Made by a program: the position numbers and the translations under genes | Notes under the pieces: generated by a model | Database searches by the model: none | The model's input: the letters and a program-made list of their open reading frames with translations, nothing else | Told to the model about the DNA's origin: nothing | Shown: positions 31,810 to 35,612 of the stretch, in pieces | Numbering within the stretch: the stretch's first letter is position 1 | Layout of the letters: each line of letters starts with the position of its first letter | Origin: an uncultured Erysipelotrichaceae bacterium | GTDB taxonomy: Bacteria > Bacillota_I > Bacilli_A > Erysipelotrichales > Erysipelotrichaceae | Assembly: GCA_949289855.1 (NCBI GenBank) | Contig: CASEPS010000014.1 | Location: 1 to 41,846 of the forward strand | Length of the DNA: 41,846 nt | Direction: 5' to 3'

Positions 31810-33033
31810 TTACTGTTTATTATTCCGGTCAAAGCTCATACCGCCTTCACCAGGATTGCCAAACTCCTTGCGATAGGCATCCTGCTTTGTGATGACATCA
31901 ATCAGTTCCGAAGGCAGATAGACAAATACCGGCCCAAACGGATTAATGACAAGACCCTGGTGGCCCTTCCACATGATGTTGACGGCATCCTGGAAAGTGA
32001 TACCTAATGTGGATGGCTGCTTGCCAGAACGGAATAGCTGTTTCCAGCCTTTGAGTGCTTCCATATCTGTAAACAAGGCAAATGTACGTACTTCCTTGCC
32101 ACTATCCGAGCGGTTTACACCCATAAACCCAATCTTTGTATCCTGGGAAAAACCGACTTTGCCATTGATGACACTTGGCGCATGTTCCATCATGACCGGT
32201 ACCGTGAAACGGCTGTGGGTGAGCACACGGATAAAGCGTGTCATGAATTCATGTTCACGGCTGTAGCGGGCATATTCATATGTCATGCCATAGAGCAGTG
32301 GGTTTTCCACATTGATGGCAGGTTTGTCATCCGTTGGCAGAATGCTCGAAATAACCGCAAAGTGAAGATCATCTGTATTCACATTCTTCAACCCATCAAG
32401 AGACAACTGAACACTTTCATCTTTTGCAGTAGCAGCCGTGATGCCACCTTTTGAAACAGATGCAATACGGACACGCTTTGTATTGCCATCAGAAAATAAC
32501 AATACCGCAAGGTCTCCCACCTTGATTTCACCATGGACAATGCCTTCCACATGTACTTGTTCATCCTGTATGACATTGGTGATCATCAATGTATAGCGGC
32601 GGTTTTCCTTATTTGTATATACCGTTTCTCTTTTCAGCACATTCTCTATACGCGTTGCCTTAAGATCAATCGGTACAACTTTCTTCTGGAAGATAACCAG
32701 AGCAACCATCACCAGCACCATGCTAAGGAGATTTCTATACAGTGCAGATGGATCATTCACACTATTGACAAAGTTGTTCATGGCGAAGTAGATGCACACA
32801 AGCATCATTGCCCAGAAAATGTAGGCATGAGGCAGTTTCTTTGCATCAATGGCACCAAGTATTGCACATTGCTTATAAAAGGAAACCACTAGACAGCCTA
32901 CACCAAGCAATGTAATCAAAGCATATGCCATGGTCGCTGCTGAACGATAACCAGTCAGCAATAACATGAGACCACCATACACAGCAAGTCCCATGCCAAT
33001 CATATTTACATACACAATCCATTTGTTCTTCAT
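31810..33033 (-). CDS. Four-helix membrane protein with C-terminal SseB domain
   Basis: 407 residues. Four N-terminal membrane helices (about 7-27, 32-52, 69-87, 101-117), then a beta-rich middle region (about 140-232; GIVHGEIKVGDLAVLLF resembles a translation-factor-type beta barrel), then an SseB-family domain (about 265-385: VPVMMEHAPS, FALFTDMEALKGW, AVNIMWKGHQGLVINPFGP). The large part after helix four is probably cytoplasmic. SseB domains occur in secretion and signalling proteins of unclear biochemistry. The start lies 3 bases after a BlaI-type regulator, so the two form an operon. This three-part combination is not one I recognise. Confidence 0.8.
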   Translation of the reverse strand: MKNKWIVYVNMIGMGLAVYGGLMLLLTGYRSAATMAYALITLLGVGCLVVSFYKQCAILGAIDAKKLPHAYIFWAMMLVCIYFAMNNFVNSVNDPSALYRNLLSMVLVMVALVIFQKKVVPIDLKATRIENVLKRETVYTNKENRRYTLMITNVIQDEQVHVEGIVHGEIKVGDLAVLLFSDGNTKRVRIASVSKGGITAATAKDESVQLSLDGLKNVNTDDLHFAVISSILPTDDKPAINVENPLLYGMTYEYARYSREHEFMTRFIRVLTHSRFTVPVMMEHAPSVINGKVGFSQDTKIGFMGVNRSDSGKEVRTFALFTDMEALKGWKQLFRSGKQPSTLGITFQDAVNIMWKGHQGLVINPFGPVFVYLPSELIDVITKQDAYRKEFGNPGEGGMSFDRNNKQ

Positions 33034-33036
33034 AGG

Positions 33037-33390
33037 CTATATCGTATATCTGCGTATAATGTTCAAAAGTCTGCCTGCATCGAGCCGGGAAATACCATCA
33101 TGGGCAAAATAGCTTTCCAGAAACTGGGCAAGTGAACCCTGATAGTTTGTCTCTATGAAAGACTTAGCCCAGTCATGGTAATACCTGCCACGCTCCACTT
33201 TCATATAGAGCCTGCTGTCACGGTTTTCCAGCATTTCCTTATCGCGCATTCTCTTGATCAGTGTAAAGACAGTAGACTTCTTCCAGGCATAGTTGCTTTC
33301 ACAAAGCTTCACCAGCTGCATGGAACCAATACCCGGATTTGCCCAGACCCATTCAGCGATCTTCATTTCTGCCTCGCTCATCATACGCAT
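33037..33390 (-). CDS. BlaI/MecI/CopY-type transcriptional repressor
   Basis: 117 residues from the ATG 5 bases after GGAGG; the frame is open further upstream but that part covers the promoter. Winged-helix N-terminus with the BlaI pattern SEAEMKIAEWVWANP, recognition region WKKSTVFTLIKRMRDKEML and wing RLYMKVERGRYYHDW, then a helical dimerisation tail. Family members repress an operon until a membrane sensor-protease (BlaR1/MecR1) inactivates them. No BlaR1 is present; the next gene is a membrane SseB protein. Confidence 0.88.
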   Translation of the reverse strand: MRMMSEAEMKIAEWVWANPGIGSMQLVKLCESNYAWKKSTVFTLIKRMRDKEMLENRDSRLYMKVERGRYYHDWAKSFIETNYQGSLAQFLESYFAHDGISRLDAGRLLNIIRRYTI

Positions 33391-33409
33391 CATTTCCTCC
33401 ATTGAGATT

Positions 33410-33438
33410 AGTCTACAGTTGTCAATCATGTTAGTCAA
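33410..33438 (-). promoter_or_regulatory. Promoter of the BlaI-SseB operon with possible operator
   Basis: -35 TTGACT (33438-33433), 17-base spacer, -10 TAGACT (33415-33410). The spacer contains ACAACTGTAG, a loose match to the TACA...TGTA half-sites used by BlaI/CopY repressors, and GACTAA occurs twice. Autoregulation is likely but the operator is imperfect. Confidence 0.55.
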
Positions 33439-33476: not shown

Positions 33477-34193
33477 TCACATTTCCAATAGTTTCTCTAC
33501 CACTTTAGAGGCAATGAGAAGCCCTGCTGCAGGTGGCACAAAAGCACTGCTGCCAGGTATAGAACGTTTACCTTCTGGCACTTCTTCTGTACTTTGTTCC
33601 TTTGCATGGATTGGCAGTTCTTCACTATAGACAACAGATAGTTTATCTATACCAAGTTTTCTCAGTTCTCGTCTCAGGACTTTCGCCAATGGATCATTCT
33701 TTGTCTTGAACAGGTCTGTATAAACAAGCTTTGAAGGGTCCAGGCGGTTACCGCATCCCATGCTGGAAATGATGGGAATGTTTTCTTCACGCGCTGCTTT
33801 AATGATATCTATCTTGGCTGATACCGTATCAATGGCGTCTACAATAAAGTCCCACTCTCTAAAAGGAAAGTCACCCCGCTTCTCTGGCAGATAGAAAACC
33901 GGATAAAAATTCACCTGAATAGAAGGATCAATGTCATGTATCCTTTCCTTTGCGACATCACATTTCAGCTTTCCAACAGTACTATGCAAAGCATAGATCT
34001 GCCGGTTGAGATTAGTCAGCGAAACATCATCATGGTCAATCAGATCAAGTGTTCCTACACCACTTCTTGCCAATGCTTCTACAACATATCCACCTACGCC
34101 ACCAATACCAAAGATGGCAACTCTTTTGCTTCTCAGTTTTTGAAATGCTTCATTTCCAATAAGCATCTGAAATCTTGCATATTGATTTGTCAT
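33477..34193 (-). CDS. tcdA: tRNA threonylcarbamoyladenosine dehydratase
   Basis: ThiF/E1-like enzyme that cyclises t6A37 of tRNA to ct6A using ATP. 238 residues. Adenylation-domain motif AIFGIGGVGGYVVEALARSG (about residue 26), DHDDVSLTNLNRQ about 53, and DFIVDAIDT about 115. The late SVVYSEE segment is typical of TcdA rather than MoeB/ThiF, and the zinc CxxC pairs are absent, also as expected. No tight neighbours; predicted near-leaderless transcript. Confidence 0.9.
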   Translation of the reverse strand: MTNQYARFQMLIGNEAFQKLRSKRVAIFGIGGVGGYVVEALARSGVGTLDLIDHDDVSLTNLNRQIYALHSTVGKLKCDVAKERIHDIDPSIQVNFYPVFYLPEKRGDFPFREWDFIVDAIDTVSAKIDIIKAAREENIPIISSMGCGNRLDPSKLVYTDLFKTKNDPLAKVLRRELRKLGIDKLSVVYSEELPIHAKEQSTEEVPEGKRSIPGSSAFVPPAAGLLIASKVVEKLLEM

Positions 34194-34205: not shown

Positions 34206-34304
34206 TCCTTTTCATGAGCTAATGCACACCTATGTGACAAATTTCGATTACATTCGCCTTATTTCAGTTTTGAATGACTACACATCCATTTCATTCACCC
34301 TGCA

Positions 34305-35351
34305 TTATACCTTTATATAACGTGTCGCCCTCGACGAGCCGATACGTTTTATCATGCCGCTTTTTACCATAGCACCGAGGACAGCTTCAACGGTGGTCGG
34401 GCTGACATCGGGTATAATCTTACATATCTCAGCTTTGGAAAGCGGCGTCAAACTGTTTAATATTGTAGCCTCCACACGGGCTTTCTTTGTAATCTTCTTT
34501 CCGTGAACAACAGCGAAACGCTTATCAAGTTCCTTATAGCACATATAAAGGGTGGACAAGAAATTTTCAATAAATGGGAAGTAGCTGTTTTCGTTTGTTC
34601 CCCAACCAATCGAGGATTGACGGAGCGATTCATAATAATAGGCTTTGTAGTTATTGATCTGTTCCTCAAAGGACACATACTTTCCTGCGTCGAACCCATT
34701 TTTATAAAGAAGCAGCAGAGAGAGCAGCCGCGACATTCTACCGTTTCCGTCCCGAAACGGGTGTATGCAAAGGAAATCCAAAATCACGCAGGGAATCAGT
34801 AAAAGCTGGTTGATATTGGCGTCACTGCGAGCTTCCATATAAGCCAGTTCTAATTGTTCCATTGCCTTTGGCGTTTCATCGGCCGGTATAGGACGAAAAC
34901 GAACCCGTCTGTTGCCGTCAGCGTCGATCTCCAAAATCACATTGTCATCGGTTTTGTATTGACCGCCGTATTCATATCCGGCAAAGGACATCATTATTTC
35001 GTGTAAGCGTAAAATATCACGCTCTCTGAAATCAATATGTTCAAAGCCCAAATAAATTTCATTTAAGGCGTCCCTATAACCGGCGATTTCCGCCTCGTTA
35101 TGATTTAAGGGAGCGCTGTTTTGATTGACAATCGCAGCGATACGCTCATCACTTGTAACAATACCCTCAATAGCATTAGAACTCTTAATCGACTGTACCT
35201 TTGCAACTGCCTCTAACTCCGTAAAAATTTGGGTATATTCCTCTTTTCGCACTCCCGTCATTGTTTTCAATGCCGAAATATTTGAAGTAAGATTCACCAA
35301 ATTTGCAGGCAGTAAGCCGTTGCTTAAAAAAGAGTAATCGAATTTCCTCAT
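34305..35351 (-). CDS. Fic-family protein AMP-transferase with winged-helix C-terminus
   Basis: 348 residues from MRKFDYSFLS (an ATG 21 bases earlier is an alternative). Layout: N-terminal Fic_N region with the inhibitory alpha-helix motif SNAIEG near residue 60 (the S/TxxxE-G/N pattern of class II, self-inhibited Fics); Fic core with HPFRDGNGRMSR, catalytic His197; C-terminal winged helix (SKAEICKIIPDVSPTTVEAV) ending RATRYIKV. Fic enzymes transfer AMP to hydroxyl groups of target proteins. Codon choice (CGN arginines, GCC/GCG, TCG) differs from the neighbours and the gene stands alone, pointing to horizontal acquisition. The dense palindromes upstream suggest self-regulation. Confidence 0.92.
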   Translation of the reverse strand: MRKFDYSFLSNGLLPANLVNLTSNISALKTMTGVRKEEYTQIFTELEAVAKVQSIKSSNAIEGIVTSDERIAAIVNQNSAPLNHNEAEIAGYRDALNEIYLGFEHIDFRERDILRLHEIMMSFAGYEYGGQYKTDDNVILEIDADGNRRVRFRPIPADETPKAMEQLELAYMEARSDANINQLLLIPCVILDFLCIHPFRDGNGRMSRLLSLLLLYKNGFDAGKYVSFEEQINNYKAYYYESLRQSSIGWGTNENSYFPFIENFLSTLYMCYKELDKRFAVVHGKKITKKARVEATILNSLTPLSKAEICKIIPDVSPTTVEAVLGAMVKSGMIKRIGSSRATRYIKV

Positions 35352-35362
35352 ATCACACCATC

Positions 35363-35449
35363 TTTTCTGCATATTATTTCAGCATATTATATGCAGAAAA
35401 TCAAGCCATATCTGTTTTTATATGCATATAAAAAAGGGAAATATATGCA
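35363..35449. promoter_or_regulatory. ATATGCA operator-like array upstream of fic
   Basis: A perfect 12-bp inverted repeat TTTTCTGCATAT/ATATGCAGAAAA (35363-35374, 35389-35400) is followed by a perfect 20-bp palindrome centred on ATGCAT (35415-35434). ATATGCA or its complement occurs five times in 87 bases (35368, 35389, 35420, 35423, 35443). A TATAAT for fic (35391-35386) sits between the first two arms. Confidence 0.6.
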
Positions 35450-35612
35450 GATACGATGGAACAATGTGCAGGAACTTATGCATCTTGGTGTTGAAAAGCT
35501 AAACCACAGAAAAATAATGCAACAGCTCGATATCCAGAAAATACAGGATTATGCACTGTGTGTTCCAAAGAGCAACAAGATCATGGAAATGCTGCAAACA
35601 GAAGTACTGTGA
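35445..35612 (+). CDS. Small ORF divergent from fic, unknown
   Basis: 55 residues from MQIRWNNVQELM; AAGGGAAA lies before the ATG. An in-frame ATG at 35391 would add 18 residues but falls inside the inverted repeat. The peptide is mostly helical and slightly basic, with no recognised domain. It could be a small partner of Fic, a remnant, or chance. It ends just before the pflB terminator. Confidence 0.35.
   Translation: MQIRWNNVQELMHLGVEKLNHRKIMQQLDIQKIQDYALCVPKSNKIMEMLQTEVL

What the first reader, a model, noticed from the sequence alone, without database searches (positions are those of the whole stretch)
35363..35612. Fic AMP-transferase beside a five-copy ATATGCA palindrome array and a small divergent ORF
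The array (12-bp perfect inverted repeat plus 20-bp perfect palindrome) covers the fic promoter and the start of a divergent 55-codon ORF; both possible first ATGs lie in the repeat arms. The Fic protein ends in a winged helix, so it could bind this array and regulate itself. Codon use marks the locus as imported. It may be a compact mobile toxin-like or stress-response module.
Basis: partly seen in the sequence, partly recalled or inferred. Interest (0 to 1): 0.58.

Follow-up and report, generated by a model that had tools for sequence, protein, structure and literature searches.

The report
Fic enzyme gene with self-operator array
The repeats beside this bacterial Fic (AMP-transferring) gene are conserved in nearly all its close relatives and look like the switch that the Fic protein itself binds to turn its own gene down, while the small neighbouring reading frame is only the broken end of another gene.

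Summary
The repeats are real and look functional. At least one CTGCATAT-N13/14-ATATGCAG pair lies upstream of 79 of 80 close Fic homologues. The proximal pair brackets the -10 box; its half-sites are 94.6% identical between 37 loci, against 47.8% at third codon positions. More distant Fic-wHTH homologues, at least seven motif classes within one genus, carry different inverted repeats at the same kind of place. Over 51 divergent Fics, operator similarity follows the C-terminal winged helix once catalytic-domain identity is allowed for (partial r 0.29, p 0.0005), and not the reverse (r 0.007, p 0.44). Best explanation: Fic represses its own promoter through its winged helix. The kind is known: Yersinia CccR does this (PMC9755527). 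New are the two-operator layout and a family-wide, testable helix-operator correspondence. The small ORF is not a partner: it is the last ~37 codons of an AbiEi antitoxin gene fused to fic-promoter DNA; none of the 80 homologous loci has it. The module (34251-35479) is 96% identical to DNA in two other named organisms, so it was transferred. Binding, repression, AMPylation and any defence role are inferred, not shown.

The parts
34305..35351 (-). fic gene, 348 aa: class II Fic AMP-transferase with C-terminal winged helix
   Evidence: Pfam PF02661 E 7.9e-15; 80 homologues 81-97% identical align from residue 1; dN/dS 0.20, 0.05 and 0.02 against L042, L043 and L044
34728..34763 (-). catalytic FIC motif HPFRDGNGRMSR, residues 197-208
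   Evidence: alignment A1
35163..35180 (-). N-terminal inhibitory motif SNAIEG, residues 58-63 (S58, E62, G63 invariant)
   Evidence: alignment A1; motif definition as quoted in PMC9755527
34308..34514 (-). C-terminal winged-helix domain, residues 280-348
   Evidence: AlphaFold2 models pLDDT 89 and 87; domain alone resembles PerR 2fe3 (E 5.5e-4, TMq 0.76), DIP2311 3lmm and Fur-DNA complexes
34359..34400 (-). predicted recognition helix, residues 318-331 (PTTVEAVLGAMVKS)
   Evidence: helix H318-331 in the model; helix identity tracks operator sharing
35367..35374 (-). proximal operator, half-site B (ATATGCAG in fic orientation), over the expected transcription start
35389..35396 (-). proximal operator, half-site A (CTGCATAT in fic orientation), between -35 and -10
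35399..35404 (-). -35 box TTGATT; the CTTGA bases are 70-96% conserved in register over 80 upstream regions (79 loci and the window)
35376..35381 (-). -10 box in the conserved register, TGAAAT here against TATAAT-like in most relatives (17-bp spacing)
   Evidence: position read from the sequence
35422..35429 (-). distal operator half-site (ATATGCAT here; ATATGCAG in most relatives)
35443..35450 (-). distal operator half-site (CTGCATAT in fic orientation)
35464..35471 (-). weaker third half-site (CTGCACAT in fic orientation), also seen in L042 and some other relatives
34251..35479 (-). transferred fic module, 96% DNA identity to L042 and L045; right edge at 35479 shared by six homologous loci
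34251..34289 (-). remnant of a downstream SLFN_AlbA_2 gene: first 13 codons with an early stop
35496..35612 (+). remnant of an abiEi antitoxin gene (last ~37 codons); not part of the fic module
   Evidence: tblastn 62% over 37 aa to L032 AbiEi residues 144-180; parent AbiEi PDLC02238 E 2e-79 and its neighbour AbiEii PF08843

Best explanation
The array is the operator of a self-repressing, horizontally spread, single-gene Fic module. The Fic protein carries an AMP-transferase domain, its own N-terminal inhibitory helix and a C-terminal winged helix. The winged helices, probably of a dimer, bind CTGCATAT half-sites whose starts are 21-22 bp apart (two helical turns, same DNA face). The proximal pair lies between -35 and -10 and across the transcription start, so binding would exclude RNA polymerase; the distal pair, about 54 bp (five turns) upstream, would strengthen repression by cooperativity. 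Seen in sequence: array, conservation, register with the promoter, uniqueness in the genome, covariation with the winged helix, transfer. Inferred: binding by Fic, dimerisation, repression, AMPylation, and a toxin or anti-phage role of the SoFic kind. The small ORF is a gene remnant and plays no part.
For: Operator pairs in 79 of 80 homologous loci, 60 with two pairs. Half-sites 94.6% pairwise identical against 67.0% in the spacer, 47.8% at third codon positions and 40.3% in a linker stretch, over 37 loci in one register. Promoter register conserved. Different inverted repeats for different recognition helices inside one genus: PTTVEA-CTGCATAT, LSSVEG-TTCCCTTA, SSSVEA-TCTCCCAA, RSSALA-TCGTCCAA, QATVQR-TTTACTCAT, DTTIQR-TTTAGTC, VTTIER-TTGCCTCAT. 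Partial Mantel over 51 representatives: operator similarity ~ winged helix given catalytic domain r 0.294 p 0.0005; ~ catalytic domain given winged helix r 0.007 p 0.44. Pairs under 50% identical in the catalytic domain share an inverted-repeat 6-mer in 0 of 37, 4 of 265, 27 of 200, 12 of 47 and 1 of 1 cases as helix identity rises. Of six named plasmid homologues two carry the motif expected from a helix match: Acetoanaerobium (VTTIEK, TGCATA) and Acidovorax (SRDMVR, GGGGTA as in L148). Flanking genes differ from locus to locus and the motif differs between Fics of one genus, so no neighbour or host factor explains it. Precedent: CccR represses its own promoter through its HTH (PMC9755527).
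Against: No binding or expression data. The window's -10 (TGAAAT) and one distal half-site (ATATGCAT) depart from the family consensus, so the promoter may be weak or decaying here; flanking abiEi and AlbA_2 genes are broken. Homologue L090 lacks the pairs. 35 of 163 Fics showed no inverted repeat at p 0.05. Helix alone is not a complete predictor: the nearest neighbour by helix shared an inverted-repeat 6-mer in 23 of 51, the same as by catalytic domain (23 of 51), when no identity limit is set; the helix wins only among divergent pairs (9 of 51 against 1 of 51 below 50%). The rest of the winged helix carries signal besides the recognition helix, and given the recognition helix alone the catalytic domain keeps some (r 0.19, p 0.001). 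The other four of six plasmid homologues gave partly shared or unclear motifs. SoFic DNA binding was undemonstrated and CbFic2 bound random DNA (PMC10628234).
Confidence: 0.82

Rival explanations
1. A host transcription factor, not Fic, binds the array.
For: The half-sites are palindromic like many regulator sites, and host regulators of the Fur/PerR kind have winged helices like the one here.
Against: The motif class changes with the Fic winged helix inside one genus; the exact site is unique to fic in its genome; it is kept in hosts of many lineages.
Confidence: 0.08
2. The array is part of a divergent two-gene toxin-antitoxin unit: fic plus the small ORF.
For: The ORF is open, divergent and starts within the repeats; Sofic of E. 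coli has a 47-aa antitoxin, though encoded downstream (PMC12249575).
Against: The ORF is the tail of an abiEi gene joined to fic DNA between 35479 and 35496; no abiEi match in any of 80 homologous loci; apart from operator and fic DNA read in antisense and AlbA_2, no small ORF is conserved beside fic.
Confidence: 0.03
3. The repeats are the end or recombination site of a mobile element and not a regulatory site.
For: The module is transferred and its edge lies near the repeats (35479); homologues occur on plasmids and viral contigs.
Against: The pairs sit in fixed register with the promoter and not at a constant element end; flanks vary while the repeats stay; the sequence follows the winged helix.
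Confidence: 0.04
4. Decayed locus: fic and its operator are a relic on the way to loss, with no function in this genome, though the operator works in relatives.
For: Neighbouring abiEi and AlbA_2 are broken; -10 and one distal half-site are degenerate.
Against: fic is intact with its catalytic motif and dN/dS is below 1 against its relatives (0.20 for L042, 0.05 for L043).
Confidence: 0.15

Closest known systems
CccR of Yersinia pseudotuberculosis (PMC9755527; passages read)
   Same: Class II Fic with N-terminal inhibitory helix and C-terminal HTH; represses its own promoter through an inverted repeat near -35/-10.
   Different: One operator of 10-bp half-sites 26 bp apart; here two tandem operators with 13-14 bp between 8-bp half-sites. 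CccR is a T6SS effector; no secretion link was looked for here. 7xux, which I take to be CccR from its length and release date (not confirmed), matches the family profile only weakly (E 6.6e-12).
SoFic / Sofic single-gene anti-phage Fic (3eqx; PMC12249575: abstract, passages and discussion read)
   Same: Class II Fic plus C-terminal domain; PADLOC SoFic profile E 1.1e-33.
   Different: Fails the NCBIfam SoFic equivalog (37 against 550 bits); no small downstream antitoxin conserved in 80 loci; DNA binding of SoFic was undemonstrated according to PMC10628234 (2023).
8uqu, Bordetella bronchiseptica Fic (PDB entry; no paper found)
   Same: Nearest solved relative by full-length sequence (E 1.5e-108); Fic domain Z 33.8, rmsd 1.6 over 252 residues.
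   Different: The structure shows the N-terminal domain only; its helix (SRDMVRLVL) suggests a GGGGTA-type operator, by likeness to L148 and L222; not looked up.
CbFic2 of Coxiella burnetii (PMC10628234; passages read)
   Same: Class II Fic with winged helix; DNA binding stimulates (de)AMPylation and its authors propose a DNA-induced deAMPylating dimer.
   Different: Bound random DNA in the tests reported; specific site unknown.
AbiE type IV toxin-antitoxin (PMC3985639; passages read)
   Same: The small ORF is the C-terminal remnant of an AbiEi gene; AbiEi also binds paired inverted repeats in its promoter.
   Different: The window lacks the AbiEi winged helix and the AbiEii toxin.

Membership tests
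Class II Fic AMP-transferase | FIC motif HPFx[D/E]GN[G/K]R | tested here: met
   HPFRDGNGRMSR, residues 197-208; PF02661 55.9 bits against cut-off 24
Class II Fic AMP-transferase | [S/T]xxxE[G/N] inhibitory helix N-terminal to the motif | tested here: met
   SNAIEG at 58-63; S58, E62 and G63 invariant in 18 sequences
Class II Fic AMP-transferase | AMP transfer to a target | not testable with these tools
   needs biochemistry
Self-repressing Fic-HTH (CccR type) | C-terminal HTH or winged helix on a class II Fic | tested here: met
   models and fold match
Self-repressing Fic-HTH (CccR type) | inverted repeat at -35/-10 of its own promoter | tested here: met
Self-repressing Fic-HTH (CccR type) | 10-bp half-sites separated by 26 bp | tested here: not met
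   8-bp half-sites with 13-14 bp between them
Self-repressing Fic-HTH (CccR type) | direct binding and repression | not testable with these tools
   only covariation evidence
SoFic (NCBIfam equivalog NF046030) | score above curated cut-off 550 bits | tested here: not met
   37.4 bits
SoFic defence system (PADLOC PDLC03963) | profile match over most of the protein | tested here: met
   E 1.1e-33, residues 49-345; the table prints no curated cut-off
SoFic defence system (PADLOC PDLC03963) | protection against phage | not testable with these tools
   needs a phage assay
Sofic-AS1 pair | small antitoxin gene conserved beside fic | tested here: not met
   no conserved small ORF within 700 nt in 80 loci other than fic/operator antisense DNA and AlbA_2; AS1 itself was not used as a query
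AbiE type IV toxin-antitoxin (the small ORF) | full-length AbiEi with winged helix | tested here: not met
   only residues 144-180 of 180 match
AbiE type IV toxin-antitoxin (the small ORF) | adjacent abiEii | tested here: not met
   no AbiEii match better than E 0.78 in the window
Class I Fic toxin-antitoxin (Phd/Doc, VbhA/VbhT) | separate antitoxin carrying the inhibitory helix | tested here: not met
   the inhibitory motif is in the Fic protein itself

The most novel reading that the evidence does not exclude
The operator array is itself the antitoxin. Fic bound to its own promoter sites is held as an inactive or deAMPylating dimer (as the CbFic2 authors propose for DNA-bound Fic), and the repeated pairs act as a sink as well as a repressor site. 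If the locus is lost, or phage destroys host DNA, the released protein becomes an AMPylating toxin: a one-gene addiction or abortive-infection module whose antidote is its own promoter DNA. Each Fic-wHTH subfamily would have its own private operator code.
Probability: 0.1. Interest if true: 0.85.

Novelty: new variant of a known kind. Interest (0 to 1): 0.5.

Why it matters
Many class II Fic enzymes carry a C-terminal winged helix, yet in the papers read specific DNA binding has been shown only for CccR; for SoFic it was undemonstrated and for CbFic2 the site is unknown (PMC10628234). The comparison done here yields operator predictions straight from genome sequence for many Fic-wHTH subfamilies, and a helix-operator correspondence that can be tested by gel shift and helix swaps. 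If it holds, these single-gene modules combine enzyme, inhibitor and repressor in one protein.

Tried and rejected
Rejected: (1) small ORF as partner: abiEi remnant. (2) 20-bp palindrome as the unit: a single-base difference in one distal half-site makes it self-complementary; most relatives have ATATGCAG there. (3) fic start at 35372: upstream of the expected transcription start; homologues align from 35351. (4) RNA element or tRNA: no Rfam or tRNA match in the window. (5) A constant partner gene: a downstream Pfam census of 76 of 80 neighbours (L052, L090, L114 and L121 were left out of the alignment by me) found SLFN_AlbA_2 in 8 and otherwise scattered families; tblastn finds AlbA_2 traces in 14 of 80 loci, full or nearly full length in 7. 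Upstream neighbours were listed but not searched as a set.

Led nowhere: NCBIfam for the AbiEi-like proteins; the literature search on 8UQU and one on fido domain/operator; the VIA second look covered mostly residues 3-284 and says little on the winged helix, hence the separate domain model. The plasmid record of Acetoanaerobium has no annotation at the match.

Caveats on counts: one search took 163 distinct Fic proteins by a regular expression from all loci then held; one search kept 159 (length and upstream filters) and 55 representatives below 80% identity; one search dropped 4 (L018, L022, L028, L029) for catalytic-domain identity to the window below 0.30. The inverted-repeat finder sometimes picks another repeat (L013 a hairpin-like repeat; L107 one far upstream), which adds noise. 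Mantel tests on related sequences are only approximate.

Full report
OBSERVATION. The repeats are there: five ATATGCA copies on the two strands, a perfect 12-bp inverted repeat (35363-35374 / 35389-35400) and a perfect 20-bp palindrome (35415-35434). They cover the region upstream of a minus-strand fic gene, 34305-35351. The plus-strand ORF can start at 35391 (73 aa) or 35445 (55 aa), both in repeat arms.

CONSERVATION. One scan of species genomes returned 80 Fic homologues, 81-97% identical, from records labelled Lachnospiraceae, Oscillospiraceae, Erysipelotrichales, Kallipyga, Holdemania, Gastranaerophilales and others (the 80 are the best of 292). All align from the methionine at 35351. Their upstream regions carry the same elements: with at most one mismatch per half-site, 60 of 80 have two inverted pairs of CTGCATAT and ATATGCAG, 19 have one and one (L090) has none; proximal mostly at about -45/-23, distal at about -99/-78, nearly all with 13-14 bp between half-sites. 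Exact half-sites number 227 in 12,754 nt upstream against 35 in 394,953 nt of flanks. In 37 sequences in one register the proximal half-sites are 94.6% identical in pairwise comparison, the spacer 67.0%, a linker stretch 40.3% and third codon positions 47.8%. The pairs stand in fixed register with CTTGA (-35) and a TATAAT-like -10 at 17 bp: half-site A lies between the boxes and half-site B over the expected start. In the window the -10 in that register reads TGAAAT. The exact pair occurs once in the 2.33-Mb held genome; with N14 and up to three mismatches the next sites listed have two mismatches.

WHO BINDS. Fic homologues 33-47% identical, from the window's own genus, have other inverted repeats at the same kind of place: TTCCCTTA with helix LSSVEG, TCTCCCAA with SSSVEA, TCGTCCAA with RSSALA, TTTACTCAT with QATVQR, TTTAGTC with DTTIQR, TTGCCTCAT with VTTIER. 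I added 50 IMG/VR loci and loci from the same order. Of 163 distinct Fics, 128 have an upstream inverted repeat at p up to 0.05 against shuffles. On 51 representatives (55 below 80% identity, four distant ones dropped), operator similarity correlates with winged-helix identity given catalytic-domain identity (r 0.294, p 0.0005), while the reverse is null (r 0.007, p 0.44). With the recognition helix alone as control, the catalytic domain keeps some correlation (r 0.19, p 0.001), and the rest of the winged helix matters too. A second, simpler measure agrees: among pairs under 50% identical in the catalytic domain, those sharing an inverted-repeat 6-mer rise with helix identity, 0 of 37, 4 of 265, 27 of 200, 12 of 47, 1 of 1. 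Nearest-neighbour prediction without an identity limit does not separate helix from catalytic domain (23 of 51 each); below 50% identity it does (9 of 51 against 1 of 51). Of six named plasmid homologues taken afterwards, two carry the motif expected from a helix match (Acetoanaerobium, TGCATA; Acidovorax, GGGGTA as in L148); the other four gave partly shared or unclear motifs. So Fic itself is the likely binding protein.

PROTEIN. The Fic domain has HPFRDGNGRMSR and SNAIEG, so it is class II. AlphaFold2 gives mean pLDDT 89. Nearest structures are Fic proteins (8uqu Z 33.8, rmsd 1.6 over 252; SoFic 3eqx Z 26.4, rmsd 2.8 over 268; 7xux Z 25.9, rmsd 2.7 over 255). The C-terminal 69 residues modelled alone (pLDDT 87) resemble PerR (2fe3, E 5.5e-4), DIP2311 and Fur bound to DNA. 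Against L042, L043 and L044, dN/dS is 0.20, 0.05 and 0.02.

SMALL ORF. Its last ~37 residues match the C-terminus of a ~180-aa protein in three same-family genomes (62% to L032). That protein scores as AbiEi (PDLC02238, E 2e-79) and is followed by AbiEii (PF08843, E 2.5e-20). In the window the rest of abiEi and all of abiEii are missing. Sequence shared with the fic module ends at 35479; abiEi homology begins near 35496 (start read from the alignment). None of the 80 homologous fic loci has abiE, and no other small ORF is conserved beside fic.

MOBILITY AND SURROUNDINGS. Window 34251-35479 is 96% identical to L042 and L045, whose flanks differ from the window's. In relatives a SLFN_AlbA_2 gene (PDC-S50 in PADLOC) or a piece of it follows fic in 14 of 80 loci, full or nearly full length in 7; the window keeps 13 codons of it with an early stop. 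In two same-genus genomes (L202, L204) the BlaI/SseB pair lies directly next to pflB, with neither fic nor the ThiF-family gene between, so this stretch is an insertion relative to them. More distant homologues occur on plasmids (62 records, all below 60% identity) and in three phage records.

MECHANISM. Seen in sequence: conserved paired sites in promoter register, unique in the genome, covarying with the winged helix. Inferred: a Fic dimer binds two half-sites 21-22 bp apart and blocks the polymerase, and a second dimer at the distal pair strengthens this. Because the protein holds its own inhibitory helix, the gene would be a one-piece device. [quoted passage not shown] the window Fic matches PADLOC's SoFic profile (E 1.1e-33) but not the NCBIfam SoFic equivalog, so a defence role is possible and unproven.

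KNOWN OR NEW. CccR, a class II Fic-HTH, represses its own promoter by binding AGATAATCAT-N26-ATGATAATCT (PMC9755527, passages read). So self-repression by a Fic protein is known. Here the layout differs (two operators, 13-14 bp spacers) and the correspondence extends over a large family. My ten literature searches (open-licence PMC papers only) showed no family-wide operator comparison for Fic proteins in their listings; that is not proof of absence. CbFic2 (PMC10628234, passages read) is stimulated by DNA and its authors suggest a DNA-bound deAMPylating dimer; this grounds the bolder reading in the section on the most novel reading.

Noticed in passing
window 31810-33438: A BlaI/MecI-type repressor gene (33037-33438) directly before a membrane-like protein with an SseB domain (31810-33033); a similar pair lies next to pflB in same-genus loci L202 and L204.
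   Followed up: no
window 33477-34193: ThiF-family gene (TcdA-like by best NCBIfam match, below cut-off) between BlaI and fic; absent from that place in L202 and L204, so it may belong to the same insertion.
   Followed up: no
L011, L012, L139, L009, L130 and others, upstream of fic: In several other Fic subfamilies a further half-site overlaps the ribosome-binding site or start codon (such as AAGGGA next to ATG), which could add translational or roadblock control.
   Followed up: no
L221 (Lactobacillus kefiranofaciens plasmid pWW1): A Fic-wHTH gene lies among toxin-antitoxin genes (RelB/DinJ, Phd-like/RelE and an AbiEi-domain antitoxin), so fic and AbiEi meet in an unrelated island too.
   Followed up: no
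L090 upstream of fic: The one close homologue without operator pairs: the upstream region is replaced just before the last half-site, so this Fic may be unregulated or inactive.
   Followed up: no
L043, L054, L066, L069, L073, L089: fic is followed 8-30 nt later by an SLFN_AlbA_2 gene (PADLOC candidate PDC-S50), a possible ancestral two-gene unit that decays often while fic stays.
   Followed up: partly
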